Source: an uncultured Oscillospiraceae bacterium (GTDB lineage: Bacteria; Bacillota; Clostridia; Oscillospirales; Oscillospiraceae). Taken from it: a DNA stretch of 64,000 bases. Under the pieces are notes generated by a model. That model searched no databases and was not told the DNA's origin. It was given only the letters and a program-made list of their open reading frames with translations. The DNA lies in NCBI GenBank assembly GCA_947628185.1, contig CANQYW010000007.1, positions 1 to 64,000 on the forward strand, written 5' to 3'. A program made the translations under genes and the position numbers. Positions 8,716 through 51,556 of the stretch are shown piece by piece (position 1 is the first letter of the stretch; every line of letters begins with the position of its first letter).

Positions 8716-8726
8716 GCGCCGCCCCC

Positions 8727-9767
8727 TCAGTAGTGGACCACTTCACCGGCCCGCCGGATGGCCTCCAGCACCGGGGCGGCCTCGGGGGAGGCGAGGTACT
8801 CCCAGGTGGTGGCGGGGACGAGCTCCCGCGCCTCCTCCATGCGTCCATCGTGGATGAGCCTCCGGACGGTGCTGGCGCTGACAGCCGCCCCGCCCGTCTC
8901 GAGCCGCGGGACTATGACGCAGGAGAGGCCGAGTTTCGGCAGTTCCTGGGCCATCACCCTATTATATAGCCCCGTCACCTGGCTCGTGGGCTCCTCCCCC
9001 ACGTACCTGGCGGAGAGGCCCAGCGCCGGCGCTATGGAGCCGAAGAGCGCCAGATCCAGCCTCGCGTGCCCCTCAATTACGGCGGCCTCGTCCCGCAAAA
9101 AGTAGCTGGGGAAGGTGGCGGCGCTTATGATGTATGGCCCGCTCTTGTGGCAGATGACGTTTTCAAGGTCCGCCACGCCCCGGGTGACGAGTTTCCAGCG
9201 GACGTCAAAGGGCACCAGGCTCTCGTCCTCGCTGAGGACAAATAGGTGCACCGTGTCGTTCTCCCTGGCCGCCCGCTCCACCAGGTACCTGTGGCCCAGG
9301 GTGAAGGGGTTGGCGTTCATGACTATGGCCGCGCTGCGGCCGGGACGCCGGGACTTCGCGAGCCCGTCGCAGTAATTTTTAAAGCTCCTGGGGCGGTTCT
9401 CAAGGAACGAGAGTGTGTCCTCCACCCGGGCGATCTCATAAAAGCCCAGGTCCTTGAAGAACTTTACGCTCTTCGCCTTCGTGTAGACAAAGAGGTGGAA
9501 GAGCCCCCGCTCCGCCTCCCTGGCGGTGAGGTGGGAGACCACCTCGTTTAAGAGCCCCTCGCCCTGCCGCGCGCTGTCCACCGCGAAACACCGGAGGGTG
9601 TTCCGAAATGTGCTGCCGGTGGCCACGAGGCGCCGGTCGTCGTCAAATATCCCGCAGGTGTAGTCAAGGTTCCCGTCCCGGCGGATGCCCTCCCGCTCAA
9701 GGAGCGCGTCCACCTGTGCCCAGGCCCGCTTATCCCAGGAATTTATGGTCTCCAACGTGTCGCTCAT
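8727..9767 (-). CDS. citC: [Citrate (pro-3S)-lyase] ligase (acetate:SH-citrate lyase ligase)
   Basis: CitC acetylates the prosthetic-group thiol of citrate lyase using ATP and acetate, switching the enzyme on. The 346-residue protein has an N-terminal GNAT-like part (VDSARQGEGLLNEVVSHL, about residues 60-90) and a C-terminal nucleotidyltransferase part with NANPFTLGHRYLVE (the HxGH-like motif, about 150-165) and SASTVRRLI near the end. GGAGGCGGCG precedes the ATG. It lies upstream of citXG in the order citC-citXG, and 145 nt after the transporter gene with a stem-loop between. Confidence 0.95.
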   Translation of the reverse strand: MSDTLETINSWDKRAWAQVDALLEREGIRRDGNLDYTCGIFDDDRRLVATGSTFRNTLRCFAVDSARQGEGLLNEVVSHLTAREAERGLFHLFVYTKAKSVKFFKDLGFYEIARVEDTLSFLENRPRSFKNYCDGLAKSRRPGRSAAIVMNANPFTLGHRYLVERAARENDTVHLFVLSEDESLVPFDVRWKLVTRGVADLENVICHKSGPYIISAATFPSYFLRDEAAVIEGHARLDLALFGSIAPALGLSARYVGEEPTSQVTGLYNRVMAQELPKLGLSCVIVPRLETGGAAVSASTVRRLIHDGRMEEARELVPATTWEYLASPEAAPVLEAIRRAGEVVHY

Positions 9768-9859
9768 ATCGCCGCCTCCATTCTATGCGGTATTATAACA
9801 TACCCCGCCCCCCAGCGCCATAGTGTAAGCACGAAAAAGGGAAAAAGGGCACGTTTTTG

Positions 9860-9884
9860 CCCCCGGCGTCCTGAGACGCCGGGG
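9860..9884 (-). other. GC-rich stem-loop between transporter and citC
   Basis: A perfect 10-bp stem (CCCCGGCGTC/GACGCCGGGG) with a 4-nt loop lies between the CitMHS gene and citC. On the minus strand the T-rich stretch begins only about 11 nt beyond the stem, so it may be a partial terminator or an RNA-processing/stability element that sets different levels for transporter and maturation genes. Confidence 0.5.
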
Positions 9885-9912
9885 ACGAAAAGTTTGAATT
9901 TTGCCGGAAATT

Positions 9913-11310
9913 TTAGAAAACCATTATACCCATTATGATAGCGAAGATCATGCAGAGTATGGAGAATCCCCAGACGTACATAAAGCTGGCCTTGATGTGG
10001 TCCTTGATGTCCACATCCGCGAGGCCGACGCCGAGGAGGGTGGCGGGGACCATGGGGCTGATGAAGGTGGCGCAGTTGCGGCAGACGACCATAGCCACGG
10101 CGATGGGCAGGGGGTCAACACCGAATCCCTGGCCGATGCCGATCATAACGGGCAGCATACCGAAGAAGTAACTGTCGGTATCGAAGGCCAGAGCCAGAGG
10201 CACGGACAGGATGCCGATGACGATGGGCAGGTGGCGGCCAAGGAACTCGGGCAGGATCTGCCTTATGATGTCCGCCAGGCACCTGACGACGCTGGGCTTG
10301 GCAAGCTCGCCCATGTACTTGACGTTTGCCACAACGAGCTCGCCGGCGTCATTGGTCATATAGCTGGTGGTGAGGATGCCCATGAGGACGGCGGCGCCCA
10401 TGAGTGTGGAGCACATCATGAGGGCGGGGCCGGCATGGAGGTTGATGAGTTTCTTGTGCATGTTGGCGGTGAAACCGTAGTTCACGAAGAGCGCGATGGC
10501 GACGCCCAGCATGAAGGGCAGGTAGCTGGGGAACACGTCCCAGATGAGCATGGCGATGACGGCCACGGTGAGCAGGAGGTTGAAGAAGAAGAGCTTGGGA
10601 CGGGCAAACTCGTTCACCTGGGTGCTGGTGGTCTCGGTCTCGCTGGTGTCAGCGAGGGTGCCCTTGAGCCCGGCGCCCCGTTTCTGCTCCTGAATGCCCG
10701 CCAGGACCGCGTGGCCGAGGCAGAGGACTATGCCGAAGATCTGGATGGGGAGTATCGTCTGCCAGAGGGAACCGGCCTCGATGCCAAGGACCGTGGCGGC
10801 ACGCATGGTGGGGCCGGCCCAGGGCATGAGGTTCAAAACGCCCATGGCGAGGACCGCAATCCTCAGGAGCGTTGTGGGACGCATGTTCATGCGCTTGTAG
10901 ACGGGCAGCATGGCGGGGACGATGATGCAGAAGGTGGAGGCTCCGCCGCCGTCCAGGTGGCCCACAAGGGCGATGACGGCAGTCACCAGGGTGACGCCGA
11001 TGACGCTCTTGCCCACGAGTTTCATGAGCTTGCCAATTATGACGTCGAACATGCCGGCGTCAGTCATGATGCCGAAGTACAGGACTGAGAAGACGAAGAG
11101 CGCGGCGGTGGGGCCGGTGCTCTTAAAGCCCGCCTCCACCATCTCGGCCAGCTGCTCAAAGTTGTAGTAGCCGCCGATGACGAGGATGATGCCGAGGATC
11201 GCGGGGAAGACGATGAATGCTATGCTGGGGAGGGTCCGGCTCTGGAACAGTACAACGACTATCGCCACTATACACGCAAGTCCCAGAAGTCCAACTACGG
11301 TCGTGTTCAT
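9913..11310 (-). CDS. CitMHS-family citrate (metal-citrate) transporter
   Basis: This 465-residue membrane protein with about eleven spans matches the CitMHS family, secondary transporters that take up citrate complexed with Mg2+ or Ca2+ in symport with protons. Diagnostic stretches are HLDGGGASTFCIIVPA, NLMPWAGPTMRAATVLG and ALAFDTDSYFFGMLPV. A cytoplasmic loop around residues 225-255 is rich in Thr/Glu. AAAGGGG precedes the ATG. It lies between citF and citC, which makes citrate its likely substrate. The use of a metal-citrate carrier rather than a CitS-type sodium symporter is notable. Confidence 0.92.
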   Translation of the reverse strand: MNTTVVGLLGLACIVAIVVVLFQSRTLPSIAFIVFPAILGIILVIGGYYNFEQLAEMVEAGFKSTGPTAALFVFSVLYFGIMTDAGMFDVIIGKLMKLVGKSVIGVTLVTAVIALVGHLDGGGASTFCIIVPAMLPVYKRMNMRPTTLLRIAVLAMGVLNLMPWAGPTMRAATVLGIEAGSLWQTILPIQIFGIVLCLGHAVLAGIQEQKRGAGLKGTLADTSETETTSTQVNEFARPKLFFFNLLLTVAVIAMLIWDVFPSYLPFMLGVAIALFVNYGFTANMHKKLINLHAGPALMMCSTLMGAAVLMGILTTSYMTNDAGELVVANVKYMGELAKPSVVRCLADIIRQILPEFLGRHLPIVIGILSVPLALAFDTDSYFFGMLPVMIGIGQGFGVDPLPIAVAMVVCRNCATFISPMVPATLLGVGLADVDIKDHIKASFMYVWGFSILCMIFAIIMGIMVF

Positions 11311-11363
11311 TTGCTCTTTTTACCCCTTTCGCTTTTTAAAAATTTTCTTCCGCTTTTATCTCA

Positions 11364-11387
11364 CTAAATTTACGTTAATAAATTTAG
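11364..11387. repeat. AT-rich perfect inverted repeat downstream of citF
   Basis: CTAAATTTA and TAAATTTAG form a perfect 9-bp inverted repeat with a 6-nt loop in the 111-nt, very AT-rich spacer between citF and the transporter gene. It could be a weak hairpin or an operator; no clear promoter accompanies it. Confidence 0.6.
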
Positions 11388-11421
11388 CAAAATACTGTTT
11401 ATTTTTTATATTTTTATTATT

Positions 11422-12987
11422 TTATTCTTCTGTGCCGGTGTAGGGCTTTATCTTGCGCACCACGTCGAGGATGGTGCCGTCGCGGGCCTCGAGGACGGCC
11501 ACGACTTTGTCCTCCCACTCCAGGTCGTCGGGGCGGCCCACCAGGGAGTAGGCCTTCTCCTTCAGGCTCTCGATGGTGACGTGGGGGATCCCGGCCTTGT
11601 CAAGGCACTCGATGAGGTCGGGGCGCAGGGGGTTCACGGCGATGCCGTAGTCCGTAACAAGCACGTCCACGCAGTCGCCGGGGGTGGTGACGGTGACGAC
11701 GTGCTCGCAGACCGTGGCCATCCTGCCGCGGGTGAGGGGCGTCACGATTATGCAGACCTTGCTGCCGGCGGCGGTGTCCGGGTGGCCGCCGGGCGCGCCG
11801 CGCAGGACGCCGTCGGAGCCGGTGAGGACGTTTACGTTAAAGCCGGTGTCTATCTCAAGGGCCGCCAGGACCACGAAATCGAGCTTATTGACGAAAGCGC
11901 CCTTGTTGGCGGGGTTCGCGTACTGGCTGGCGCTCATCTCGTAGTGGCCGGGGGTCTGGTTTATGGAGTTCACGGCGTCGAGGTCGAAGTCCTGGACGTC
12001 TATGACCTTCCCGACCTTGCCCTTCTTCAGGAGCTCCACCATGGGCCCGCAGATGCCGCCGATGGCCCAGCCCATCTTTATGCCCCGCTCGTCCATGTAC
12101 TTCTCAAGGAACAGGTTCGCCGCGAGGGACGGCCCGCCCACGCCCGTCTGGAAGGAGAATCCGTCCTTGAACCAGGGGGTGGCGGCTATGACCTTCGCCA
12201 CGTTCTCCGCCATCATGAGGTCCCTGGGGTTCTGGCTTATGCGGGCGGCGGCGGAGGCTATCTTCTTCGGGTTGCCTATGGAGTCCACTACCACGACGGC
12301 GTCCACGTCTATTGCCTCGACAGACGCGGGCATGTTGGGGAAGTCCACGAGGCAGTCAGTCACGACGACCACGTGGTCGGCGTACTTTGCGTCGGTCATG
12401 GCGTAACCCATGCTGCCGCAGTTCGACTTGCCGCCTATGCCCCGGCAGTTGCCCACGCAGTCGCTGGTGGGGGCCGCGATGAAGGCGATGTCGATATGTA
12501 CCTCGCCGCCCTCGATGGCCCTGGGGCGGCCGCCGTGGCTGCGGATTATGGCGGGGGTCTTCAGCTTTCCGGCGGAGACCACCTCGCCCATGCGGCCGCG
12601 GATGCCGGAGGTCTGGATACCCACGACCTTGCCCTGCTCTATGTAGTCCGCTATGGGGTCATGGGCGTTTCCGAGGCTGGAGGCCGCGATGGTCAGGTCC
12701 TCCAGGCCCATCTCCTCGATGGCCACGGCCATGACCTGGTTCACCACGTAGTCGCCGTCCCGGAGGTGATGGTGGAAACTGAATGTCATGCCGCTCTTGG
12801 CGCCGCACTGCTCAAGGGCAGCGCGGATGCTCTCCACCACTTTGCTCTCCTGGGGCGCCTCACAGCGCCTGGTGCGGGGGGAGGCCTTTGTTATGTACTT
12901 GCCATCCATGTAGTTCTTGCCCTGATAGACCTCTCTCCCCCCGGTGAGAAGGTACTCAGGGATATCTCTTCCAACAGCGTTTTTCAT
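11422..12987 (-). CDS. citF: Citrate lyase alpha subunit (citrate CoA-transferase)
   Basis: CitF exchanges the acetyl group on the carrier protein for citrate, the first half-reaction of citrate cleavage to acetate and oxaloacetate. The 521-residue length is normal. Recognisable stretches are MKNAVGRDIPEYLLTGG, SFHHHLRDGDYVVNQV, GGRPRAIEGGEVHIDIAF and PGGHPDTAAGSKVCIIV. The ATG overlaps the citE stop by one base, so translation is coupled. It is the third gene of citD-citE-citF on the minus strand. An AT-rich spacer follows before the transporter gene. Confidence 0.97.
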   Translation of the reverse strand: MKNAVGRDIPEYLLTGGREVYQGKNYMDGKYITKASPRTRRCEAPQESKVVESIRAALEQCGAKSGMTFSFHHHLRDGDYVVNQVMAVAIEEMGLEDLTIAASSLGNAHDPIADYIEQGKVVGIQTSGIRGRMGEVVSAGKLKTPAIIRSHGGRPRAIEGGEVHIDIAFIAAPTSDCVGNCRGIGGKSNCGSMGYAMTDAKYADHVVVVTDCLVDFPNMPASVEAIDVDAVVVVDSIGNPKKIASAAARISQNPRDLMMAENVAKVIAATPWFKDGFSFQTGVGGPSLAANLFLEKYMDERGIKMGWAIGGICGPMVELLKKGKVGKVIDVQDFDLDAVNSINQTPGHYEMSASQYANPANKGAFVNKLDFVVLAALEIDTGFNVNVLTGSDGVLRGAPGGHPDTAAGSKVCIIVTPLTRGRMATVCEHVVTVTTPGDCVDVLVTDYGIAVNPLRPDLIECLDKAGIPHVTIESLKEKAYSLVGRPDDLEWEDKVVAVLEARDGTILDVVRKIKPYTGTEE

Positions 12988-13901
12988 TACACCAAATCCC
13001 CCTCATAGAGTCCGCAGGCCCTGGCCAGCTTTAGTGTGCGCTCCGCACCCGGAATAAAGGCTATGTCGATCATCTTGCCGTCCACCGTGAAGACGCCGAC
13101 GCCGGAGGCGGACTGCTCCCTGTAGGCACGGATTATCTTCTCGGCCTGGGCGATCTCCTTCTGGGTGGGGGCGAAAACCTGGTGTACGAACCGGATCTGC
13201 TTGGGGTTGATGAGGCTCTTGCCGTCAAAGCCCATGGCTTTATTCTGAAGGACCTCGGCCTCGAAACCCTCCTGGTCGTCGAGGTTGGTGAAGACCGTAT
13301 CAAAGCACTGGACACCGGCGGCGCGGGCGGCCAGAATGACCTGTCCGCGGGCGGCCAGCATGTCCACGCCGTCCCTCTGGGGGCTGGTCTGGAGGCACTT
13401 CCTGAGGTCGCCGCCGGAGATGGCCACGCCCAGCATACGCTCTGAGGCGCAGCAGATCTCGTAGGCGTTTAAGATGCCCTTGGGGCTCTCGAGAGCCGCC
13501 ATGAGCAGCGTGCGGCCCCGCTCCACGTCAAACTCCTCCTCGGCGGCCTCCACGGCTGCCTCCACGGTCTTGACGTCCTGGGCGCTCTCGCATTTCGCTA
13601 TGCGGATGCCGTCGGCGCCGCCGGCCACGCACACCCTGATGTCCTCCCGCCAGTGGGGGGTGTCCAGGCCGTTTATGCGGACTATGACCTCGGTGCTGCC
13701 GTAATCCACGGTCTTGAGGGCGTGGTAGAGGCTAAAGCGCGCCGCGTCCTTCTGGTTCTCAGCGACGGCGTCCTCAAGATCCAGCATGATGGAGTCGCAG
13801 CCGTATATGTAGGCATCTTTTATGAGGCCCGGTTTCTGGGCGTTCATGAACATCATGGTCCGTCTCAGACGGAACCGCTCAGGTCTCGGACGAGGGATCA
13901 T
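12987..13901 (-). CDS. citE: Citrate lyase beta subunit (citryl-ACP lyase)
   Basis: CitE cleaves citryl-carrier protein to oxaloacetate and acetyl-carrier protein in a Mg-dependent TIM barrel. The 304-residue protein contains LRRTMMFMNAQKPGLIKDA, the metal-site region DSIMLDLEDAVAENQK, VIVRINGLDTPHWREDI, ALLESP-like MAALESPKGI and KSLINPKQIRFVHQVF, all typical. It overlaps citD by 4 nt (ATGA) and citF by 1 nt, as in known cit operons. Confidence 0.97.
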   Translation of the reverse strand: MIPRPRPERFRLRRTMMFMNAQKPGLIKDAYIYGCDSIMLDLEDAVAENQKDAARFSLYHALKTVDYGSTEVIVRINGLDTPHWREDIRVCVAGGADGIRIAKCESAQDVKTVEAAVEAAEEEFDVERGRTLLMAALESPKGILNAYEICCASERMLGVAISGGDLRKCLQTSPQRDGVDMLAARGQVILAARAAGVQCFDTVFTNLDDQEGFEAEVLQNKAMGFDGKSLINPKQIRFVHQVFAPTQKEIAQAEKIIRAYREQSASGVGVFTVDGKMIDIAFIPGAERTLKLARACGLYEGDLV

Positions 13902-14200
13902 CGCACAGCACCTCCCCAGGGTATATTTTCCGCAGATTTGCCGCAGCTCCTAAAGACCGCGCACTCGACTCTCGCCTTGAGGGTGCAGTCAAGGGCCCCC
14001 TTGTCCACCACCGTCACCCGGGCGTCCTTGACCTCCAGGCGCTCCAGCGTCTCCAGCACGGTGGCCTTTATCTGCCGGCCGTACTGGTTCATGACGCTGC
14101 TACTTAGCTCGAGCTCGATGCCGCCCTCTCCGGGCTCCACAGTGACCTGGGCGTCGCTGGACTCCAGCGTCCCGGCCATTGCGGATCTTAAAATTTCCAT
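13898..14200 (-). CDS. citD: Citrate lyase gamma subunit (acyl carrier protein)
   Basis: CitD is the acyl carrier of citrate lyase; the phosphoribosyl-dephospho-CoA group is attached to Ser14. The 100-residue product has this serine in MAGTLESSDA (Ser14) and the family segment DKGALDCTLKARVECA. GGAGAAACAC precedes the ATG. It is the first gene of the cluster, divergent from the lysR gene, with a 221-nt AT-rich spacer that holds the likely operator. Confidence 0.95.
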   Translation of the reverse strand: MEILRSAMAGTLESSDAQVTVEPGEGGIELELSSSVMNQYGRQIKATVLETLERLEVKDARVTVVDKGALDCTLKARVECAVFRSCGKSAENIPWGGAVR

Positions 14201-15334: not shown

Positions 15335-15366
15335 AATAGGCGTCCCCCCTACCGGGACGCCTATTT
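15335..15366 (+). terminator. Rho-independent terminator after lysR
   Basis: AATAGGCGTCCC and GGGACGCCTATT form a perfect 12-bp stem with a 7-nt loop, ending in TTTT, between lysR and the TIR-NACHT operon. Confidence 0.85.
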
Positions 15367-15478
15367 TCGCTAAACGCGGCTATCCACGGCCTGCGAAAAA
15401 CCGGCGTCCGCGCCGTTAAAAGTTTATAAAGGTCATCATTACGGCTTTCCCATTGTATATATAAGGAGGTCTATAAAC

Positions 15479-18400
15479 ATGCAAGATGAACAAAACGCCC
15501 TTGTCTGCCCGGTTTGCGGCTCGGGGGACGTGATGGAGGTCCGCGGCATGGGCGTCTGTTTCGCCTGCCGCGCCAAGTTCGAGCTGCCGAAGACGGATGA
15601 GGAGCCCTTCCAGCCTCTCAGCCTCTTCCTGAGCTACGGCCACCCGGAGGCGGAGATCTGCCGCCGGATAGTGGCGGCCCTCCGGGAGCGGGGCCACAAG
15701 GTCTGGATGGATGAGGACAAGATCCACACCGGCGACGACTGGCGGCGGCGCATCATGCAGGGCGTCTCCGAGAGCCAGGGCGTGGTGTCCTGCCTCTCCC
15801 GGCACTCCGTCCGGGACCCCGGGGTGTGCCTCGATGAGCTCTCCATAGCCATCGGCGTCAGCGGCGGCAACATAAAGACCGTCCTCTTGGAGCCGGAGCG
15901 CCTCGTGGAACCCCCACCCTCCCTCTGCCACCTCCAGTGGCTCGACATGAGCGAATGGAAACAAAAACTCAGCGAGGGCGAGGCCGCTTTTGAGCCCTGG
16001 TTCAAGGACAAGATGGAGCAACTCATCAAGGTAATTGAGAGCCCCGACAGCCAGGAGTTCGCGGGACAGATAGCGGAGCTCAAGAAGAAACTATACGTCA
16101 ACTACAGCACCGGGAAACAGCGTGATCTATTAAGCCGCCTCTTCGTCGGGCGGGGCTGGCTCACCCAGGAGGTGGAGGACTGGTTAAACGACCCCAACGG
16201 CAACCGCCTCTGCGTCCTCTATGGCGACCCCGGCGTGGGCAAGAGCGCCTTTGCCGCCCACTACATACACTACAACCCCCGCGTGGCCGCCGGGCTATTC
16301 TGCGAGTTCAGTCACCCCCACTACAACGAGCCTCGGACTCTCCTCATGACCCTCGCCTACCTCCTGGCCTGCCGGATACCGGATTATAGGTCAGCGCTCA
16401 TAGCCTCCCTCGAGCATGAAAAGAGGCTCGGCAGCATGGAGCCCTCGGAACTATTCGATCTACTGTTCACCGGCCCCATGGGGCGTTTAATGGTGGACGG
16501 CAGCCGTGAGACGCTCTGCGTCGTCATCGACGGCCTCGACGAGTGTTCCTCCGGGGAATCCAACACCGTGGCCCAGGTGCTGGGGCAGTTCGCCCCGCGC
16601 CTGCCGAAGTGGTTAAGGATACTTGTAACCGCCCGGGAAGTGGCCTCCGTACAGGAGCCCCTGGGCGGGGCACACCACTTAGAGCTCCACGGCGCCGAGG
16701 CGCGGAACCTCTCGGACGTGGAGGAGTACTTCAAGGCCATACTTGGCGAGCGTTTCGGCTCTGACCCCGAGTGGAACGAGGCGCTTTCGGCGCTCCGGGA
16801 GCGCAGCGGCGGCATATTCCTCTACGCCCAGCTGGTGGCGGAGGGAATTTTGAGCGGGAAACTCACCCTCCGGGACACCTCCTCCTTCCCCTCCGGGATG
16901 TCCGACGCATTTCATAGATGGTTCACATGGTTCTTCCCGGATGTGGAGGAGTATAAGCGGGAATGGCGTCCGGCATTTGACCTGCTCCTTGCTTCATCGG
17001 AGCCTCTTCCGAAAGACGAACTCCGGGAAGTTCTCCACTGGAGCGACGGGAAACGGAAAGATTTCCTCCGGCGCGTGAAAGTCCTCCTCCGGGAGGGGAA
17101 AAACGACTGGGGCAAGGAGACGGTGGAATTAACACACCTCTATCTTCGTCAATGGCTCTCCTCCAGCGGCATGTACTCCGCCAGCGCCGTGGACGGCGCG
17201 GAGGCCATGGAGCGGGAGTATATGGTGAAACTCCGCACAGCGCCCAAGGATCTCTCTGAGTACGGGGCTCTCTACCTCGCGGCTAAGCCCGGCATAGACA
17301 GCCGTCTCACGGAGGACGAGCGGCACAATCTCGTCTGGCGGTGCATAGACGCCGGTGACTACTGCACGGCCTGGCTAAAATACGCCTCCGGCGAACGGGC
17401 CCTGCGTCTCGCCCTCACAAGGGCGGAGGCCGGGGCCAAAGGGAGCAGCGTCTCCCGCACGCTGCGTGACTACGGCGTCAGCTGCAACAGGCTCGCCGCG
17501 GTCTTGGACGAGAACGGCGACGTGGCGGGGGCCCTCAAGCTCTACGAACAGGGTCTTCAGATGGCCCAGAGGGTTGTGGAAAACGGCGACAGGCCCGGCG
17601 CGCTCAAGGACCTCACCATCAGCTACAACAACGTGGCCAGCATACGCCGCGCCCAGGGGGATCTCCGTGGGGCGCTGGAGCTATACGAGAAGTCCCTCGC
17701 CATCCGGGAGAAACTTTACGAGGAGCGCCGCACTCCCACCACCCTGCGGGACCTCTCCATAAGCTGTAACATGGTGGCCACAGTCCGGGAGGACCTATGG
17801 GATCTCGACGGGGCGCTGGAGCTCTACGAGCGGGCCCTCGCCATCCGGGAGGAGCTGGCGCGGGAGGACAGTTCCACCTCCGCCCGCCGGGACCTCTCCA
17901 TAAGCTACAGCAAGGTGGCGGCACTTCTCCAGAAATTAGGCAACTACACGAGGGCCAAGGAGCTCTTTGAGAAGGACTTGGAGCTCGCTGAGGGGCTGGT
18001 GCGGGAGCTGGGCACCCCCGACGCCAGGCGATCCCTCAGTATATGCTACAACAAGCTGGCGAAACTCTACAAGGCTCTGGGGGACCTTCCGGGGGCGCTG
18101 GAGTACTACAAGATGGACTACAAGCTCTCCGAGGAGCTGGCCCAGGAGGGCGGCACGCCCACGGCCCTCAGAGACCTCAACGTAAGCTGCAACGCCATGG
18201 GCGACACCCTGAAGGCCATGGGCGATTTGGACGGCGCGCTGGAGCAGTACATGCGGGCCCTGGCGCTGGCCGAGAGAGTTGTGAAGATGCGCGACGTCCC
18301 CGACGCCCGCCGGGACCTCTCCGTCAGCTACAACAAGATAGCGGGGCTGCTGGAGGCCAAGGGGGATCTGGACGGGGCCCTCAAGTACTGCGAGATGGAT

Positions 18401-19468
18401 CTGGCCATAAGCGAGGAGCTGGCCCGCATGGACAACTCCCCTGAGTGCCGCCGGGACCTCTCCATAAGCTACAGCAAGATATCCACGGTGCTCCTGTCGA
18501 AGGGCGATCTCCAGCGGGCGATGGAGTACCGGCAGAAGGACATCGCCATCGCGGAACAGCTTGTCCGGGACAACGAGTCCATCGGCACCCTGGGGGATCT
18601 CTCCGTCAGTTACGACAAGGCCGCCAAGATCTGCCTCTCCCTCAAGGACTACGAGAGGGCCCGGTACTACTATGGCCGCAGCATAGAGCTCTCTGAGCGG
18701 GTGGTCAAGCGGAGCGATTCCACCTCCAGCCGCCGGGACCTGGCCATCACCTACTATCTCTTGGCGGACGTCCTCAAGGAGCAGGGGGACAACGCCGGGG
18801 CGCTGGAGCTCTACGAGAAGGGCAACGCCGTGATAGAGCACCTGGCGGGCGAGGACTCCCCCCTCAAGCTCGATAGGACCCTGGCCATGGGCCACGACGA
18901 GGCCGGGGAGCTGGCCGCGTCCCTGGGGCGCGACGACGCCGCCATGGCCCACTACGACAGGCAGATCGAGCTCCGGGAGCTCATCGTAAAGAAGGATGAC
19001 ACCCCCCAGACCCAGCGTGGGCTCTTCGTGAGCTATTTCACCTGCGCCTCCTCCCACGAGACGAACGGTGACCTTGCGGGGGCATACAAGCTCTTTGAGC
19101 GGGCCTCGGTCCTGGCGATGGAGACGTTCAAGAGACAGCACGGCACCCCGGAGAGCCGCCGGGACGTGTGCGTGTGCGTCAATAGGCTCGGCTCCGTGGC
19201 CCAGAGCATGGGGGACAACGAGCGGGCCATCCAGCTCTTTGAGCGGAGCCTCAAGCTGACGGAGGAGCTTTACCGCAAGCGCGGCAGCGCCGGGGACCTT
19301 GACGATCTGGGTTTCGTCCTCTATAAGCTGGTGGGCGTCCCGGGCCTCGGCACTGAGAAACGCCGCCGCATGGCGGAGTACGGGCTCATCGTGGCGAAGA
19401 AACTCAACAAGGATGACCCCAAAGAGCGCTACGAGATAATGTGCTCCTTCTTTAAGTCCAAGCTGTGA
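15479..19468 (+). CDS. TIR-NACHT-TPR protein 1 (NLR-like STAND ATPase)
   Basis: This 1329-residue protein has, in order: a zinc ribbon (Cys10, Cys13, Cys27, Cys30; CPVC and CFAC); a TIR domain (about 47-150; SLFLSYG, VWMDEDKIHTGDDW, and Glu120 in CLDELSIAI aligned with the NADase glutamate of SARM1-type TIRs); a NACHT-type ATPase with Walker A GDPGVGKS (249-256), Walker B VVIDGLDEC (348-356) and sensor-like ILVTAREV; a helical region; 13 TPR-like repeats of 47 residues (about 662-1273); and a C-terminal cap. AAGGAGG precedes the ATG. No membrane span is seen, so it should be cytoplasmic. Bacterial TIR-STAND proteins sense a cue through repeats, oligomerise through the ATPase and let TIR domains act on NAD+ or as scaffolds; an immune role here is inference. 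It begins a three-gene operon. Confidence 0.9.
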   Translation: MQDEQNALVCPVCGSGDVMEVRGMGVCFACRAKFELPKTDEEPFQPLSLFLSYGHPEAEICRRIVAALRERGHKVWMDEDKIHTGDDWRRRIMQGVSESQGVVSCLSRHSVRDPGVCLDELSIAIGVSGGNIKTVLLEPERLVEPPPSLCHLQWLDMSEWKQKLSEGEAAFEPWFKDKMEQLIKVIESPDSQEFAGQIAELKKKLYVNYSTGKQRDLLSRLFVGRGWLTQEVEDWLNDPNGNRLCVLYGDPGVGKSAFAAHYIHYNPRVAAGLFCEFSHPHYNEPRTLLMTLAYLLACRIPDYRSALIASLEHEKRLGSMEPSELFDLLFTGPMGRLMVDGSRETLCVVIDGLDECSSGESNTVAQVLGQFAPRLPKWLRILVTAREVASVQEPLGGAHHLELHGAEARNLSDVEEYFKAILGERFGSDPEWNEALSALRERSGGIFLYAQLVAEGILSGKLTLRDTSSFPSGMSDAFHRWFTWFFPDVEEYKREWRPAFDLLLASSEPLPKDELREVLHWSDGKRKDFLRRVKVLLREGKNDWGKETVELTHLYLRQWLSSSGMYSASAVDGAEAMEREYMVKLRTAPKDLSEYGALYLAAKPGIDSRLTEDERHNLVWRCIDAGDYCTAWLKYASGERALRLALTRAEAGAKGSSVSRTLRDYGVSCNRLAAVLDENGDVAGALKLYEQGLQMAQRVVENGDRPGALKDLTISYNNVASIRRAQGDLRGALELYEKSLAIREKLYEERRTPTTLRDLSISCNMVATVREDLWDLDGALELYERALAIREELAREDSSTSARRDLSISYSKVAALLQKLGNYTRAKELFEKDLELAEGLVRELGTPDARRSLSICYNKLAKLYKALGDLPGALEYYKMDYKLSEELAQEGGTPTALRDLNVSCNAMGDTLKAMGDLDGALEQYMRALALAERVVKMRDVPDARRDLSVSYNKIAGLLEAKGDLDGALKYCEMDLAISEELARMDNSPECRRDLSISYSKISTVLLSKGDLQRAMEYRQKDIAIAEQLVRDNESIGTLGDLSVSYDKAAKICLSLKDYERARYYYGRSIELSERVVKRSDSTSSRRDLAITYYLLADVLKEQGDNAGALELYEKGNAVIEHLAGEDSPLKLDRTLAMGHDEAGELAASLGRDDAAMAHYDRQIELRELIVKKDDTPQTQRGLFVSYFTCASSHETNGDLAGAYKLFERASVLAMETFKRQHGTPESRRDVCVCVNRLGSVAQSMGDNERAIQLFERSLKLTEELYRKRGSAGDLDDLGFVLYKLVGVPGLGTEKRRRMAEYGLIVAKKLNKDDPKERYEIMCSFFKSKL
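17462..19297 (+). repeat. Tandem 141-bp coding repeats (13 TPR-like units of 47 residues)
   Basis: Thirteen consecutive 47-residue units follow the pattern RRDLSxSYNKxA...GDLxGALELYE...EELxxxxxTPxA; unit 12 has one extra residue. Canonical TPRs are 34 residues and kinesin-light-chain types 42, so the period is unusual. Units are diverged from one another and no two adjacent ones look recently duplicated. Confidence 0.85.
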
Positions 19469-19506
19469 CGCGCCCCTCCCCCATCTCTCCACAAGGAGGT
19501 CACGCT

Positions 19507-21123
19507 ATGACGGATAATAACACTTTAAACCCCCAGGCCATAGAGAACATGGCCATACGCATGAGCCGCGAGGCCGACGCCCTGCGGGACCAGGGGGATC
19601 TTGCAGGGGCCTCGGAGCTATACGACAAGGCCCTCGCTATGGCGGAGGAGGCAGTGCGGGCTGGGGGCGGTGAGAGTTCCCGAAGGGTACTCAGGGTATC
19701 CTGCATCAGCGCCGGCGGCATCCGGGTGGGACTCGGGGACTTTGCGGGAGCGATAGCGCTCTACGGGCGGGGCCTCGAGACTGCCCTCCTCTCCCTCCGC
19801 CTCGGCGACGCCGGGGCCCGGAGGGGCGTCTCCATATGCCACAGCGCCATAGCCGGGGCCCTCCGGGCCCAGGGGGACCTTCCGGGGGCGCTGGAGCACT
19901 ACTCGGCGGCTATCGACAATTCCTGGGAGCTCCTAAAGGAGACCGGCGGGGACCAGGACCGCCGGGACTACAGCGTCTACTGCGCCCTGGCGGCGGGGGT
20001 CCTGGAGGATAAGGGGGACCTCAATGGGGCGGCGGAGCTATATAGGATAGTTCTAAAGATCCGGCGGGAGCTCATGGAGCGCCGGGACACCCCGGAGGCC
20101 CGGTGGGACCTGAGTCTCGCCTACGAGCACCTGGCGGGGGTCTTAGAGGCACAGGGGGAACTTAATGAGGCACTTGATCTCTTTGAGAAGTCCATGGCCA
20201 TATGGGAGTTGACGCTCAAGGACGATAACTGTCCCCCCGCCCGCAGGAGGTACGCCATAAGCTGCGGGAACGTGGCGGAGATACTAAAGCTCAAGGGCAA
20301 CCTCCAGGAGGCACTGGAACTATACCTGAAGAGTATGCACATGTCCGAGGAGCTGGCCCGGGAGCTTGGCACCCCGGACGCCCGGCGGGAACTCTCCATA
20401 AGCCGCGACAACGCGGCGGAGGTGATGGAGGAGCTGGGCGACACCGAGGGGGCTCTCAAGCTCTACGAGCTCGTCCTGGCGGAGGCGGAGCGTCAGGCAA
20501 GGGAGCTGGGCACTCCGAGAGCCCGGCGGGACCTCAGTATCTCCTACGGGAACGCGGCGGGCGTCTATGAGGCCCGGGGAGAGCTCAAGACCGCCCTCGG
20601 ACTCTATGAGCAGAGCCTCGCCGTGGCGGAGGAGCTATCCCGGGAGGACAAGTCGCCGGGTATGCGCCGGGACCTCAGCGTAGCTTATTGCAACGCCGCC
20701 GGACTGCGCCTCACCCTGGGGGATCTTCCGGGGGCGCTGGAGCTATATGAGAAGGATCTCGCCCTGGCGGAGGAGCTGGTCCGGGAGCTGGGCACCCCGG
20801 AGGCACGGCGGGACCTGGGCATAAGCTGTGACGGCATAGCCGAACTCTACGCGGAGATGGGGGACATGCCCCGGGCCCAGGAGTTCTTCGAGCGGGCACT
20901 GGAGGTCCGGGAGGGCCTTCTCCGGGAGGGCGGGGTCCTCCGGGACCTGGACGCCGCCATCTCCACCCTATACGGTATGGCGCTCCTGCCGACACTCCCG
21001 GAGGCACGGCGGGCTGAGCTCGCCAAAAGGGGCCTCGAGCTCCAAAGCGCCCTTGAGCGCTACGGGCCGCCGGGGAGGTATGAGGACATGGCGTCATACT
21101 TCCGCAAATGTTTGGGCTCGTGA
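19507..21123 (+). CDS. TPR-only protein between the two TIR-NACHT genes
   Basis: This 538-residue protein is built of about ten 47-residue TPR-like units of the same type as those in its neighbours, from about residue 18 to 475, followed by the same kind of C-terminal cap (LPEARRAELAKRGLEL... YEDMASYF), which matches the caps of both large proteins. It has no TIR, no ATPase and no zinc ribbon. AAGGAGGTCACGCT precedes the ATG at 19507; the frame is open further upstream into the previous gene's end, but without a site. It lies 38 nt after the first and 12 nt before the second TIR-NACHT gene, so all three are one transcript. It may be a regulator, adaptor or decoy that contacts the sensors through the cap or the repeats; function not shown. 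Confidence 0.85.
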   Translation: MTDNNTLNPQAIENMAIRMSREADALRDQGDLAGASELYDKALAMAEEAVRAGGGESSRRVLRVSCISAGGIRVGLGDFAGAIALYGRGLETALLSLRLGDAGARRGVSICHSAIAGALRAQGDLPGALEHYSAAIDNSWELLKETGGDQDRRDYSVYCALAAGVLEDKGDLNGAAELYRIVLKIRRELMERRDTPEARWDLSLAYEHLAGVLEAQGELNEALDLFEKSMAIWELTLKDDNCPPARRRYAISCGNVAEILKLKGNLQEALELYLKSMHMSEELARELGTPDARRELSISRDNAAEVMEELGDTEGALKLYELVLAEAERQARELGTPRARRDLSISYGNAAGVYEARGELKTALGLYEQSLAVAEELSREDKSPGMRRDLSVAYCNAAGLRLTLGDLPGALELYEKDLALAEELVRELGTPEARRDLGISCDGIAELYAEMGDMPRAQEFFERALEVREGLLREGGVLRDLDAAISTLYGMALLPTLPEARRAELAKRGLELQSALERYGPPGRYEDMASYFRKCLGS

Positions 21124-21135
21124 GGAGGGAAATCC

Positions 21136-24100
21136 ATGGCGGATGGGATAGAGAACAAGATTATTTGCCCGGTCTGCGGCTCCGAGGACGTGACGCGGGC
21201 GGGAAATATCGGGATCTGTTTCTCCTGCAGGGCGAAATTTGAACTTTTAGAGGCGGAGGAGAAACCATTCAAACCCCTTCGCCTTTTCTTGAGCTACGGC
21301 CACCCGGAGGCGGAGATCTGCCGCCGTATCGTGGCCGCCCTCCGGGGGCGGGGCCACAAGGTCTGGATGGACGAGGACAAGATCCACACCGGCGACGACT
21401 GGCGGCGGCGCATCATGCAAGGGGTCTCCGAGAGCCAGGGGGTCGTCTCCTGCCTCTCCCGGCACTCCGTCCGGGACCCCGGCGTCTGCCTCGATGAGCT
21501 CTCCATAGCCATCGGCGTCAGCGGCGGCAATATCAAAACGGTCCTCCTGGAACCCGAGCGTCTTGTTGAGCCGCCACCCTCCCTCTGTCACCTCCAGTGG
21601 CTCGACATGAGCGAATGGAAACAGAAACTCAGCGAGGGCGAGGCGGTCTTTGAGCCCTGGTTCAAGGGGAAGATGGAGGAGCTCATCCGCGTCATTGAGA
21701 GTCCCGACAGCCAGGAGTTCGCGGGACAAATTGCGGAGCTCAAGAAAAAGCTCTACGTCAACTACAGCACCGGCAAGCAGCGGGATCTATTAAGCCGCCT
21801 GTTCGTCGGTCGCGGTTGGCTCACCCAGGAGGTGGAGGACTGGTTAAACGACCCCAACGGTAACCGCCTCTGCGTCCTATATGGCGACCCCGGCGTGGGC
21901 AAGAGCGCCTTCGCCGCGCACTACATACACTATAACCCCCGCGTCGCGGCGGGATTATTCTGTGAGTTCAGTCACCCCCATTATAACGAGTCCCGGACGC
22001 TCCTCATGACCCTCGCCTACCTTCTTGCCTGCCGGATACCGGATTATAGGTCAGCGCTTATCGCCTCCCTCGAGCATGAAAAGAGGCTCGGCAGCATGGA
22101 GCCCTCGGAGCTCTTTGATTTACTCTTCACTGGACCCATGGGACGGCTCATGGTGGACGGCAGCCGTGAGACGCTTTGCGTGGTGATAGATGGTCTTGAT
22201 GAGTGCTCATCGGGCGAGTCCAACACCGTGGCCCAGGTGCTGGGGCAGTTCGCCCCGCGCCTGCCGAAATGGCTGAGAATACTTGTGACGGCCCGTGAGG
22301 TGGCGTCGGTACAGGAACCCCTGGGCGGGGCACACCACCTGGAACTCCACGGCGCCGAGGCGCGGAACCTCTCGGACGTGGAGGAGTACTTCAAGGCTAT
22401 TCTTGGCGAGCGTTTCGGCTCCGACCCCGAGTGGGGTGACGCACTCACCGCGTTAAGAGAGCGCAGCGGCGGCATATTCCTCTACGCCCAGCTGGTGGCG
22501 GAGGGAATTTTGAGCGGGAAATTAACCCTCCGGGACACCTCCTCCTTCCCCTCGGGGATGTCCGACGCATTTCACCGTTGGTTCACCTGGTTCTTCCCGG
22601 ACGTGGAGGAGTATAAGCGGGAGTGGCGTCCGGCATTCGACCTGCTCCTCGCCTCCTCAGAACCCCTGCCCAAAGATGAACTGCGTAACGTTCTCCACTG
22701 GAGCGACGGAAAACGGAAAGATTTCCTTAGGCGCGTGAAAGTTCTCCTCCGGGAGGGCAAAAACGATTGGGGCAAGGAGACGGTGGAATTAACACACCTC
22801 TATCTGCGCCAGTGGCTCTCCTCCAGCGGCATGTACTCCGCCAGCGCCGTGGACGGCGCGGAGGCCATGGAGCGGGAATACCTCGCAACACTCAGGGCCG
22901 ACCCGGACAAGCTCTCGGAATACGGGGCACTCTATCTCGCGTCAGTGCCGGACATCGACCAGCGTCTCACAGACGACGAGCGGCACGACCTCGTCTGGCG
23001 GTGCCTGTTGGCCGGGGACTACTGCGCCACATGGGGGAAGTATGCCTCCGCCGAGAGGGCTCTGCGTCTGGCCGTTGCCAGGTCAGAGGTGGGCGTCAGG
23101 GACAGGGACGCCGCCCGCGTCCGCCGGGCGCCGCGTTTCCTCTTTCGGACAAAGTCAGCCGAGGACAAAAGAGTTTCCCGCGCCCTGCGGTACTACGGCA
23201 TCAGCTGCAATAAACTCGCCACCGTGTTGGAGGCTATTGGAGATCTCGACGGCGCGCTGGAGCTCTACGAGCGGGGCCTCACCGCAGCTCAGAGGGTGGC
23301 GGAAGGCAGCGACGGGCCCGGCGCCCTCAAGACCCTTGCCAACAGTTACGCCAACGTGGCCGAAATACACCGCGCCCGGGGGGATCTCGACGGGGCGCAG
23401 GAACTATATGGGAAGGCCCTGGCCGTCTGCGAGGATCTGTCCCGGGAGTTTGACTCCCCGGAAATGCTGAGCGGCGTCAGCGCGTGCTGCGTCAACGTGG
23501 CGTTGATACTGGAGACCCGGGGCGACTTCGACGGGGCGCTGAAACTATATAGGCGGGCCCTGGCCATCGACGAGGAGTCTATTAAGGCGGACCGCTCCCC
23601 GGGGATCCGCAAAGAACTCGGCATAAGCTGCAACAGTGTGGCGCGGATACTGGAGACCCGTGGGGACCTGGCGGGGGCGATGAAACTCTACAAGCGGGCC
23701 CTCGCGCTCTTTGAGGAGCTCGCCCAGGAGGAGCGCACCCCGGAGATTTGCAGAGAGCTCGGCGTCAGCTGCAACAATGTGGCGGGGATCCTGGAGACCC
23801 AGGGGGATCTTGCGGGGGCGATGGAGCTCTATAAGCGTGCCCTCCACATCCGCCGGAAACTTGCCCAGGAGCTCGGCACCCCAGCCGCCCGGCGGGAGTT
23901 ATCCATAAATTACAGCAAGATCGCCTCGGTGCTCATGGTCGAGGGCGATCTCCAGCGGGCGATGGAGCTCTATCGGCGGGCCCTCGACATCCAGGAGGAT
24001 ATCTCCAAGGGCAACAGCTCCCCCTCCGCCCGCCGGGACATCATAATAAGCTGCGGCAGAGTGGCGAGGATCCTTGAGGTCCAGGGGGACCTTGATGGGG

Positions 24101-25485
24101 CGCTGAAACTATATGAGCGGTGCCTCAAGCTCTCAGAGGAGTTGGCAGAGAAGTTTGACACCCCTGATATACTGCGGGACCTGGGTGTGAGCTGCGATGA
24201 TGTGGCGAGGATACTGAGGACCCGGGGCGACCTCGAGGGGGCGCTAAAGCTATATAGGCGTGCTCTTGCGATCTCCGAGGATCTTGCCCGGAAGTTCGAC
24301 ACCCCGGATATGGTGAGAAGTCTCTGCGTGAGCTGTATGAATGTGGCAAGGGTGCTGGAGGACCAGGGGGACCTTGCGGGGGCGCTTGAACTCTACAGGC
24401 GGGACCTCAAGCTCTCCGAGGGATTGGCAAAGAGGTTCGGCACCCCGGATATGAGGCGGGATCTGGGCGTCAGCTGCGCGAACGTGGCAAGGGTGCTGGA
24501 GGATCAGGGGGATCTCGCGGGGGCGCTAAAACTGCATAAGCGGTCCCTGGCGCTCTTTGATGAGCTGGCCAGGAAATCAGGCACACCGGAGGCGCTGCGG
24601 GACCTCTCGGTAGCCTGCGACAGCGTGGCAGTTCTACTGGAGGCCCAGGGCGAACTCGATTGGGCCCTCAAGCTCTTCAGGCGCTCCCTTGAGTTCTCGG
24701 AGGAGCTGGTAAAGAGGTTCGGCACCCCGGAGATGAGGCGGGACCTCAGTGTGAGCTGTGAAAACGTGGCGGGGATACTGGAGGTCAAGGGGGACCTTGC
24801 GGGGGCGCTGAAATTATACGAGCGGGCCCTGGCCATCCGCGAAAAGCTGGCCGGGGAGAGCGGTACGCCGAAGGCGTTACAGGACCTCTCGGCGTGCTAC
24901 AACAACGTGGCTGGTGTGCTAAAGGCCCGCCGGGACCTCAATGGGGCGCTGGAACTATATAAGAAGGCCCTCACCATCCGCCGGGAACTGGCCCGGCAGT
25001 CCGCCACCCCGGACGTGATGACAGATATCCTCGTGAGCTGCAATAATATTGCCTGGATCCTTGAGGCCCAGGGGGATACATCTGGGGCGCTGAAACTATA
25101 TAGAGAGGCCCTCGCGATCTCCGAGGATCTGGCCCGGAGGTACGGCACGCCGAATATGATGCGGGATCTGGGCATAACCTGCGTCCACACGGCGAGGGTA
25201 CTGAGCTCCCAGGGTGACACAGCGGGGGCCACGGAGCTCTATGAACGGGCCCTTGCCATAGCACAGGATCTTCTGCAACAGCGAGGGAGTTTCCAGGACC
25301 TGGACTTCTTCGCCCTCGCCTCTTACCGGCTCATAGAGATGCCGGGCCTCGACCCCCGGCGGCGGTGTGAGCTCTCCTCCCAGGGGCTTGAGGCGGCTAA
25401 AAAGCTCCACGCCGCGCGGCCACAGAAACTATATGAGGACATGGTGACGCTCTTTAGCTCCTACGCGGAGCCGGGCGCCGAATAA
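21136..25485 (+). CDS. TIR-NACHT-TPR protein 2 (NLR-like STAND ATPase)
   Basis: This 1449-residue paralogue has the same order as protein 1, shifted by one residue: zinc ribbon (Cys11, 14, 28, 31), TIR with Glu121, Walker A at 250-257, Walker B ending about 357, helical region, then 15 units of 47 residues from codon 684 and a cap. From the TIR start to about residue 580 I count only about eleven amino-acid differences from protein 1, although many codons differ silently; the zinc ribbons (about half identical) and the repeats are far more diverged. A short Arg-rich insertion (about residues 655-680) precedes the repeats. GAGGAGGG lies 6 nt before the ATG. It ends the operon; a stem-loop follows at 25495. 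Confidence 0.9.
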   Translation: MADGIENKIICPVCGSEDVTRAGNIGICFSCRAKFELLEAEEKPFKPLRLFLSYGHPEAEICRRIVAALRGRGHKVWMDEDKIHTGDDWRRRIMQGVSESQGVVSCLSRHSVRDPGVCLDELSIAIGVSGGNIKTVLLEPERLVEPPPSLCHLQWLDMSEWKQKLSEGEAVFEPWFKGKMEELIRVIESPDSQEFAGQIAELKKKLYVNYSTGKQRDLLSRLFVGRGWLTQEVEDWLNDPNGNRLCVLYGDPGVGKSAFAAHYIHYNPRVAAGLFCEFSHPHYNESRTLLMTLAYLLACRIPDYRSALIASLEHEKRLGSMEPSELFDLLFTGPMGRLMVDGSRETLCVVIDGLDECSSGESNTVAQVLGQFAPRLPKWLRILVTAREVASVQEPLGGAHHLELHGAEARNLSDVEEYFKAILGERFGSDPEWGDALTALRERSGGIFLYAQLVAEGILSGKLTLRDTSSFPSGMSDAFHRWFTWFFPDVEEYKREWRPAFDLLLASSEPLPKDELRNVLHWSDGKRKDFLRRVKVLLREGKNDWGKETVELTHLYLRQWLSSSGMYSASAVDGAEAMEREYLATLRADPDKLSEYGALYLASVPDIDQRLTDDERHDLVWRCLLAGDYCATWGKYASAERALRLAVARSEVGVRDRDAARVRRAPRFLFRTKSAEDKRVSRALRYYGISCNKLATVLEAIGDLDGALELYERGLTAAQRVAEGSDGPGALKTLANSYANVAEIHRARGDLDGAQELYGKALAVCEDLSREFDSPEMLSGVSACCVNVALILETRGDFDGALKLYRRALAIDEESIKADRSPGIRKELGISCNSVARILETRGDLAGAMKLYKRALALFEELAQEERTPEICRELGVSCNNVAGILETQGDLAGAMELYKRALHIRRKLAQELGTPAARRELSINYSKIASVLMVEGDLQRAMELYRRALDIQEDISKGNSSPSARRDIIISCGRVARILEVQGDLDGALKLYERCLKLSEELAEKFDTPDILRDLGVSCDDVARILRTRGDLEGALKLYRRALAISEDLARKFDTPDMVRSLCVSCMNVARVLEDQGDLAGALELYRRDLKLSEGLAKRFGTPDMRRDLGVSCANVARVLEDQGDLAGALKLHKRSLALFDELARKSGTPEALRDLSVACDSVAVLLEAQGELDWALKLFRRSLEFSEELVKRFGTPEMRRDLSVSCENVAGILEVKGDLAGALKLYERALAIREKLAGESGTPKALQDLSACYNNVAGVLKARRDLNGALELYKKALTIRRELARQSATPDVMTDILVSCNNIAWILEAQGDTSGALKLYREALAISEDLARRYGTPNMMRDLGITCVHTARVLSSQGDTAGATELYERALAIAQDLLQQRGSFQDLDFFALASYRLIEMPGLDPRRRCELSSQGLEAAKKLHAARPQKLYEDMVTLFSSYAEPGAE
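23185..25290 (+). repeat. Tandem 141-bp coding repeats (15 TPR-like units of 47 residues)
   Basis: Fifteen 47-residue units run in register; the last is slightly shorter and leads into the cap. Units 8 to 12 resemble each other more closely than those of protein 1 (shared phrases such as VARVLEDQGDLAGAL), which hints at more recent internal duplication. Confidence 0.85.
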
Positions 25486-25494
25486 ACCAAAAAA

Positions 25495-25525
25495 GTACCG
25501 GGGCGGCAAATCACCGTCCCGGTAC
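25495..25525 (-). terminator. Rho-independent terminator between converging genes
   Basis: GTACCGGGGCGG and CCGTCCCGGTAC form a 12-bp stem with one G-T pair. On the minus strand it is followed by TTTTTT, so it serves the alpha-galactosidase gene; on the plus strand the tail is weaker but it also lies just after the TIR-NACHT operon. Confidence 0.8.
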
Positions 25526-51432: not shown

Positions 51433-51543
51433 TTCTGCATACTTCTCATTCATATCTGCATATACTATGGCCGGATTATATGCAGCAAAGTCGTCCATCC
51501 TCTTGACTTTCTGCATATAAACTGATATGATAATGTGCAGAAA
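51433..51543. promoter_or_regulatory. Operator cluster upstream of fic (CTGCATAT repeats)
   Basis: The motif TCTGCATA appears at 51434-51441, 51455-51462 and 51509-51516, and inverted (TATATGCAG) at 51477-51485; a weaker inverted copy (GTGCAGAA) is at 51535-51542. The copy at 51509 lies inside the promoter spacer and the last one spans the start region, so binding would block transcription. Confidence 0.75.
51503..51531 (+). promoter_or_regulatory. Promoter of fic
   Basis: TTGACT at 51503-51508, a 17-nt spacer and TATGAT at 51526-51531, with the start codon 26 nt further on. Confidence 0.85.
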
Positions 51544-51556
51544 CGGAGGACGAGGT

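What the first reader, a model, noticed from the sequence alone, without database searches (positions are those of the whole stretch)
15479..25485. Three-gene TIR-NACHT-TPR operon that may be a two-receptor bacterial immune system
The sequence shows two giant proteins with zinc ribbon, TIR, NACHT ATPase and long TPR-like arrays, with a repeat-only protein between them, in one tight transcript bounded by hairpins. Bacterial TIR-STAND proteins of known defence systems are usually one receptor per locus. Two near-identical signalling cores with different sensors plus a sensor-only partner suggests a composite receptor, or an effector pair with a regulator. TIR Glu120/121 and both Walker motifs are intact, so NAD+ cleavage upon oligomerisation is plausible. 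No phage or mobility genes adjoin it.
Basis: partly seen in the sequence, partly recalled or inferred. Interest (0 to 1): 0.82.

Follow-up and report, generated by a model that had tools for sequence, protein, structure and literature searches.

The report
Twin bacterial immune receptors, shared core
A bacterium carries two giant immune-receptor-like genes whose signalling halves have stayed almost identical as proteins while their sensing halves diverged, with a third, sensor-only gene between them; it looks like a bacterial counterpart of paired plant immune receptors, but no experiment has tested it.

Summary
The trio is real: A (15479-19468), M (probable start 19507, to 21123), B (21136-25485). 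A and B are CxxC/CxxC-TIR-NACHT(NPHP3-like)-TPR proteins with 13 and 15 TPR units of about 47 residues; M is a headless relative with 10 units and the same C-terminal cap. The new result is evolutionary: over residues 46-578 A and B agree at 522 of 533 residues although silent sites have diverged (dS 0.53); dN/dS is 0.029, against 0.17-0.32 in three pairs of relatives (Fisher P 4e-8 to 1e-23). Flanks are more diverged at silent sites too. The predicted core resembles plant TIR-NLRs, MalT, Apaf-1 and Avs3; TIR Glu and Walker residues are invariant in 15 sequences. Best reading: an NLR-like, probably anti-phage NADase operon whose two receptors share one signalling assembly but sense different things. 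Receptor pairs do recur in at least 3 of 17 homologous loci. New variant of a known kind. Defence, NAD+ cleavage and co-assembly are inferred, not shown.

The parts
15479..19468 (+). Gene A, 1329 aa: CxxC segment, TIR, NACHT, 13 TPR units, cap
15463..15470 (+). Shine-Dalgarno AAGGAGGT of A
15506..15568 (+). C10xxC13...C27xxC30 segment of A, zinc-ribbon-like; no Pfam match
15614..16048 (+). TIR domain of A (residues 46-190), Glu120
16091..16918 (+). NACHT/STAND NTPase of A (about residues 205-480), Lys255, D351/D354/E355
15614..17212 (+). A copy of the constrained core (residues 46-578)
17444..19279 (+). TPR array of A, 13 units
19280..19465 (+). C-terminal cap of A
19493..19500 (+). Shine-Dalgarno AAGGAGGT of M
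19507..21123 (+). Gene M, 538 aa from ATG 19507: headless TPR array with cap
19522..20928 (+). TPR array of M, 10 units
20929..21120 (+). C-terminal cap of M
21123..21128 (+). Shine-Dalgarno AGGAGG of B, overlapping the stop of M
21136..25485 (+). Gene B, 1449 aa: CxxC segment, TIR, NACHT, 15 TPR units, cap
21274..22872 (+). B copy of the constrained core (residues 47-579), Glu121
23167..25281 (+). TPR array of B, 15 units
25282..25482 (+). C-terminal cap of B
15335..15365 (+). Hairpin before A, after the LysR gene
25495..25525 (.). Hairpin after B, between B and the convergent melibiase gene

Best explanation
A scattered, lineage-specific NLR-like operon that arose by duplication of one CxxC-TIR-NACHT-TPR receptor gene, with M a relative that has only the TPR array and cap. 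Proposed working, all inferred: the TPR superhelices bind phage- or cell-derived triggers; binding lets the NACHT (STAND) NTPase oligomerise, which brings TIR domains together and starts NAD+ cleavage, stopping the infected cell. A and B carry different sensors on the same signalling core because both enter one assembly (hetero-oligomer or mutual activation), which keeps the cores from drifting apart; M is an extra sensor/adaptor, or holds the receptors off. Shown here: architecture, gene order, intact motifs, predicted fold, near-identical core protein over diverged silent sites, sensor divergence. Not shown: defence, NADase activity, oligomerisation, co-assembly, role of M.
Confidence: 0.45

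Rival explanations
1. Two independent NLR-like receptors that merely share an origin. The core is identical because it is under very strong selection in this lineage for each receptor on its own and was at times copied from one gene to the other by gene conversion; A and B form separate homo-oligomers with separate triggers.
For: Silent differences in the core are unevenly spread (P 0.013) and fewer than in the flanks (P 0.0009 by sites, 0.009 by codons), as patchy conversion would leave. Nearest relatives work, if they work, as single receptors. 6 of 14 searched homologue genomes have two or more unlinked or linked copies.
Against: Conversion alone does not lower the replacement/silent ratio, which is six- to eleven-fold below that of the compared relatives. 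Four other within-genome pairs share only 31-50% of the core, so copies in one genome are not generally held alike.
Confidence: 0.32
2. A and B are the killing receptors and M is their keeper: an antitoxin-like headless array that occupies the TPR arms or caps until a phage product removes it.
For: M lacks TIR and NACHT, has the same array and cap as A and B and is translated between them from its own strong ribosome-binding site.
Against: Relatives with single receptors have no M, so a keeper is not needed by the family; no data on interaction.
Confidence: 0.12
3. A MalT-like metabolic or stress regulator rather than a defence receptor, tied to the citrate or melibiose genes beside it.
For: MalT is among the best fold matches; neighbours are citrate-lyase and melibiase genes.
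Against: No DNA-binding domain in A, M or B, a TIR head of NADase type, and different neighbours in relatives.
Confidence: 0.08
4. Artefact: a mis-joined contig holding orthologues of two strains, or decaying genes.
For: The genome is an 83%-complete assembly of 40 contigs.
Against: All three frames are open over 10 kb, GC and GC3 match the neighbours, the arrays differ in unit number and order, and gene spacing with ribosome-binding sites is natural.
Confidence: 0.03

Closest known systems
Bacterial NACHT (bNACHT) and Avs/AVAST STAND anti-phage receptors (PMC12169576 and PMC12931631: passages read)
   Same: N-terminal effector, central STAND NTPase, C-terminal sensor; Avs3 is a top structural match of the NTPase; Avs5 also has an NADase head, and some have TPR-like sensors
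   Different: TIR head with an added CxxC segment, NPHP3-like NACHT, 47-residue TPR units; two receptors and a headless array in one operon; no PADLOC STAND-system model matched full length
Plant TIR-NLRs: RPP1, and the hetero-oligomeric pair CHS3-CSA1 (PMC11298796: abstract and outline)
   Same: TIR-STAND-repeat order; RPP1 is Foldseek's first hit; two linked receptors
   Different: NB-ARC and LRR in plants (recalled); CHS3-CSA1 type genes are head-to-head, here head-to-tail with M between; no assembly shown here
TIR-NACHT-TPR relatives found here (L019, L020, L021, L022, L085, G521, L033 and others)
   Same: Same head and STAND core, often with the CxxC segment
   Different: 28-62% identity; one copy in the genomes of L019-L022 and L085; L020 ends in an added RyR domain; L033 has two adjacent TIR-NACHT genes, but these share 42% of the core
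TIR-Sel1-TPR proteins of the same order (L093; L095 partly seen)
   Same: The same kind of repeated TPR unit as M, 34-39% identical
   Different: Other head: TIR plus Sel1 repeats; no NACHT family matched
Swarozyc/DUF4062 TIR-like NADases (PMC13174449, preprint: abstract and first part of Results)
   Same: NADase head activated by a trigger; a DUF4062 protein lies beside the TIR-NACHT gene of L024
   Different: A and B have a TIR_2-type TIR, not DUF4062

Membership tests
STAND/NACHT NLR-related receptors | Central NACHT/STAND NTPase with Walker A and B | tested here: met
   NPHP3_N E 4.4e-24, NACHT model just under cut-off; Lys255 and D351/D354/E355 invariant in 15; Avs3, NLR and Apaf-1 folds among matches
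STAND/NACHT NLR-related receptors | N-terminal effector and C-terminal repeat sensor | tested here: met
   TIR and TPR matches; 13 and 15 units
STAND/NACHT NLR-related receptors | Protection against phage | not testable with these tools
   needs experiment
TIR NADases | TIR fold with the catalytic Glu | tested here: met
   SARM1 and AbTir TIR folds; E120 invariant in 15; its equivalence to the catalytic Glu is by motif, recalled
TIR NADases | NAD+ cleavage | not testable with these tools
   needs assay
Named PADLOC defence systems (2023 models) | Full-length match to a system protein | tested here: not met
   only TIR or TPR parts matched, e.g. SAVED_TIR over 83 residues
Paired (hetero-oligomeric) NLRs | Two linked receptors with different sensors | tested here: met
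Paired (hetero-oligomeric) NLRs | Pair kept as a unit in related genomes | tested here: not met
   core found in 0 of 33 congeners and 0 of 393 other sampled order genomes
Paired (hetero-oligomeric) NLRs | Physical co-assembly | not testable with these tools
   only indirect: low replacement/silent ratio of the shared core
MalT-type STAND regulators | DNA-binding domain | tested here: not met
   no DNA-binding Pfam family at E 0.01 among those listed for A, M and B (for B the best 25 of 27)
Prophage or mobile-element cargo | Phage, integrase or transposase genes alongside | tested here: not met
   the 20 flanking genes scanned are metabolic, regulatory, housekeeping or unmatched; core not found in phage records or viral contigs

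The most novel reading that the evidence does not exclude
A bacterial paired-receptor system: two TIR-NACHT receptors with different TPR sensors and a headless sensor protein form one mixed, resistosome-like NADase, and selection to stay compatible for co-assembly freezes the shared core as protein while silent sites drift. 'Many sensors, one signalling core' would then be a bacterial strategy that can be read from sequence alone.
Probability: 0.3. Interest if true: 0.78.

Novelty: new variant of a known kind. Interest (0 to 1): 0.55.

Why it matters
Plant and animal NLRs often work in pairs or networks; whether bacterial NLR-like proteins do so is, as far as I know, open. This locus gives a concrete test case and a sequence signature (protein-frozen core over drifting silent sites, free sensors) that can be sought in other duplicated bacterial receptors. 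If A and B co-assemble, it would show how a bacterium widens what it senses without a new killing module.

Tried and rejected
Recent duplication: rejected, silent sites of the core differ at 38%. Gene conversion as the whole cause: rejected, it would not lower the replacement/silent ratio. Recent import by base composition: not seen, GC and GC3 of the trio are like the neighbours'. Proof of insertion by an empty site: not reached; CitF of the neighbouring cluster was itself found, at E <= 1e-100, only in the window's own genome among 34 of the genus, and the best melibiase relative (G022, 70%) lies on a 7.8-kb contig without a core hit, whose neighbours I did not identify. Phage origin: no match in phage records, no relative confirmed in viral contigs; PHROGs gave only short matches in the TIR and TPR parts. 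Plasmids: one distant hit (22% identity, Acaryochloris) where short hypothetical genes are annotated. Rfam: nothing at gathering scores. tRNA/tmRNA: none. Naming the host: not possible directly; RNase Y of the window is nearest (74%) to that of the L020 genome, titled Oscillospiraceae, against 40-64% in the 15 other genomes with a match (22 searched), so the host is probably in or near that family. PADLOC on ten chosen genes near relatives: 3 with partial matches (TIR/ThsB-like, PDC-S33, a HEAT-repeat model), 7 with none. Absence of a family is not used as evidence.

Limits of the searches: the genome searches rest on a loose first look and on samples; the contig scan used two peptide patterns, that (patterns from A alone) confirmed nothing. 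Core identity within genomes was compared for four pairs besides the window's (G521, G822, G828, G830); the pairs of G823, G826 and G827 were left out because my script read only the plus strand of those loci. Neighbours of the 17 loci were screened by home-made TIR and NACHT profiles built from A2 (which holds many of the same sequences) and by Pfam for chosen genes only, so '3 of 17' is a minimum.
Full report
What is there. Three genes in one direction lie at 15479-19468 (A, 1329 aa), 19507-21123 (M, 538 aa from its best start) and 21136-25485 (B, 1449 aa). Each has a strong ribosome-binding site; that of B overlaps the stop of M. Hairpins lie on both sides; the T run of the second is on the minus-strand side, towards the convergent melibiase gene. 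Pfam finds TIR_2, the NPHP3_N type of NACHT NTPase and many TPR families in A and B, and repeat families only in M. Before the TIR stands a CxxC...CxxC segment that recurs in relatives, without a Pfam match. Cut into units, A has 13, M 10 and B 15, all 47 residues apart except one step of 48 in A and one of 46 in M (tandem repeats of 141 bp in the DNA). A, M and B end in the same cap of about 60 residues, visible by eye in L020 too. M is thus a relative of the sensor arms without a head.

The core. Between residues 46 and 578 A and B share 522 of 533 residues, while the DNA is 86.6% identical over 1924 aligned bases. By the Nei-Gojobori count dS is 0.53 and dN 0.016, ratio 0.029. The same region in three pairs of relatives gives 0.166 (L019/L020), 0.281 (L085/L020) and 0.316 (L085/L019); their replacement:silent counts differ from A/B with Fisher P of 3.8e-8, 2.4e-22 and 9.5e-24. 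These pairs come from three genes and are not independent. Fourfold and nondegenerate sites alone give 0.030 against 0.200, 0.281 and 0.347. So A and B differ far less in protein than the compared relatives do at like silent divergence. Outside the core silent divergence is higher (residues 8-45: 0.69; 580-749: 0.52; core: 0.38; core against both flanks P 0.0009). Among codons for shared residues 73% are identical in the core and 61% in these flanks (P 0.009), with 48% expected at saturation. Silent differences within the core are unevenly spread (P 0.013). I read this as old, patchy exchange between the copies plus a strong demand that the two cores stay the same protein. Four other within-genome pairs that I compared share 31-50% of the core.

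The sensors. The first two TPR units of A and B still correspond (62% identical each); after that nearest neighbours are mixed. A like step is seen between L019 and L020: identity in 60-residue windows is 0.75-0.98 up to residue 660 and 0.28-0.47 after it. Across the 38 units of A, M and B the six most variable helix positions are 19, 15, 16, 28, 23 and 22. With a shift of ten, which is my own alignment of the motifs, five of them are TPR positions 5, 6, 9, 12 and 13; PMC1261162 (passages) names 2, 5, 9, 12, 13, 33 and 34 as most variable, on the concave face, and 2, 5, 6, 9, 12 and 13 as ligand contacts. The test of positions 2, 5, 9, 12 and 13 gives, over both helices, P 0.006 pooled, 0.004 for B, 0.07 for A and 0.13 for M; within helix A alone 0.03, 0.01, 0.17 and 0.23. 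Position 2 (unit 12) is not variable here, and the paper advises some 200-400 sequences, so this is weak support for ligand binding by the arrays. M is predicted with high confidence (pLDDT 92.1) as a plain superhelix like LGN and OGT repeats. Arrays of this kind also sit on another head, TIR plus Sel1 repeats, in the same order.

Distribution. The core was found in 0 of 33 other genomes of the genus and 0 of 393 other sampled genomes of the order; 1 of 397 other sampled genomes of the phylum has it, with two copies 14.5 kb apart. A scan of genome contigs with two peptide patterns found 33 loci, of which 17 carry a gene with both TIR and NACHT: four Clostridia of animal guts or rumen at 44-62% identity, the others at 28-33% and from many phyla (Planctomycetota, Verrucomicrobia, Proteobacteria, Bacteroidales, Armatimonadetes and more; one is Frisingicoccus). 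The genomes of L019-L022 hold one copy each, and 6 of the 14 searched hold two or more. One of 79 other genomes near that of L020 has a copy, L085. No locus shows the A-M-B order. In at least 3 of the 17 loci a second receptor-like gene follows in the same direction (L033 TIR-NACHT; L021 TIR-NB-ARC-TPR; L024 DUF4062-WD40 protein with a weak NACHT-profile match), several other loci being cut short by contig ends. The G521 island also has a TIR gene, a TrkA-RyR gene and a RelA-RyR gene. In the window the neighbours are citrate-lyase genes and a LysR regulator on one side and a melibiase on the other.

Interpretation. From general knowledge of STAND receptors and TIR enzymes the likely chain is: TPR arm binds a trigger, NACHT oligomerises, TIRs meet and cleave NAD+. 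No step of this is shown here. What the sequence adds is that the two signalling cores are held as one protein species while the arms are free. Joint assembly is the simplest cause, and it is how the plant pair CHS3-CSA1 works (PMC11298796, abstract and outline). The main rival is unusually strong selection on the core in this lineage for each receptor by itself; orthologues from sister strains would decide.

Known or new. The kind is known: bacterial NACHT and Avs receptors protect against phage (PMC12169576 and PMC12931631, passages); conflict systems with STAND, TIR and TPR parts are described in PMC7159879 (passages); a DUF4062 NADase system is in the preprint PMC13174449 (abstract and first part of Results); PMC13236601 (passages) concerns a CARD-NLR-like system. 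My nine text searches, of which I saw the top listings, showed no paper on a bacterial receptor pair with a shared core and a headless sensor; the library lacks most subscription journals. I file it as a new variant of a known kind.

Noticed in passing
L004 433-1893 and L006 1441-2910 (own genome, contig C26): Two neighbouring TIR genes: one fuses a TIR (with a ThsB_TIR match) to a protein-kinase domain, the other has its TIR at the C-terminus. Possibly a second TIR system of this genome.
   Followed up: partly
own genome, contigs C1, C3, C4, C13, C26: Seven TIR_2 places besides A and B in a 1.8-Mb assembly, two of them in one 585-residue protein on C4.
   Followed up: partly
L020 9857-13297: This relative of A (best segment 59% identical) carries a RyR domain after the TPR array (E 9.8e-28), perhaps a small-ligand sensor added to the same receptor.
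   Followed up: no
L021 9875-15356: A TIR-NACHT-TPR gene followed 10 bp later by a TIR-NB-ARC-TPR gene: two receptor classes in one apparent operon.
   Followed up: partly
L093 1141-3591, L095 2-2116, L098 1378-3096: Arrays of very alike 47-residue TPR units, in L093 on a TIR-Sel1 head and in L095 after Sel1 repeats, in genomes of the same order: portable sensor arrays.
   Followed up: partly
window 7330-14200: Citrate-lyase cluster with a CitX-CitG fusion; its CitF was found at E <= 1e-100 in none of 33 other genus genomes.
   Followed up: partly
window 51527-52603: Fic/DOC family gene after a GH31 glycosidase gene.
   Followed up: no
L018 2814-5408: RelA/SpoT domain fused to a C-terminal RyR domain near a TIR-NACHT gene.
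   Followed up: no
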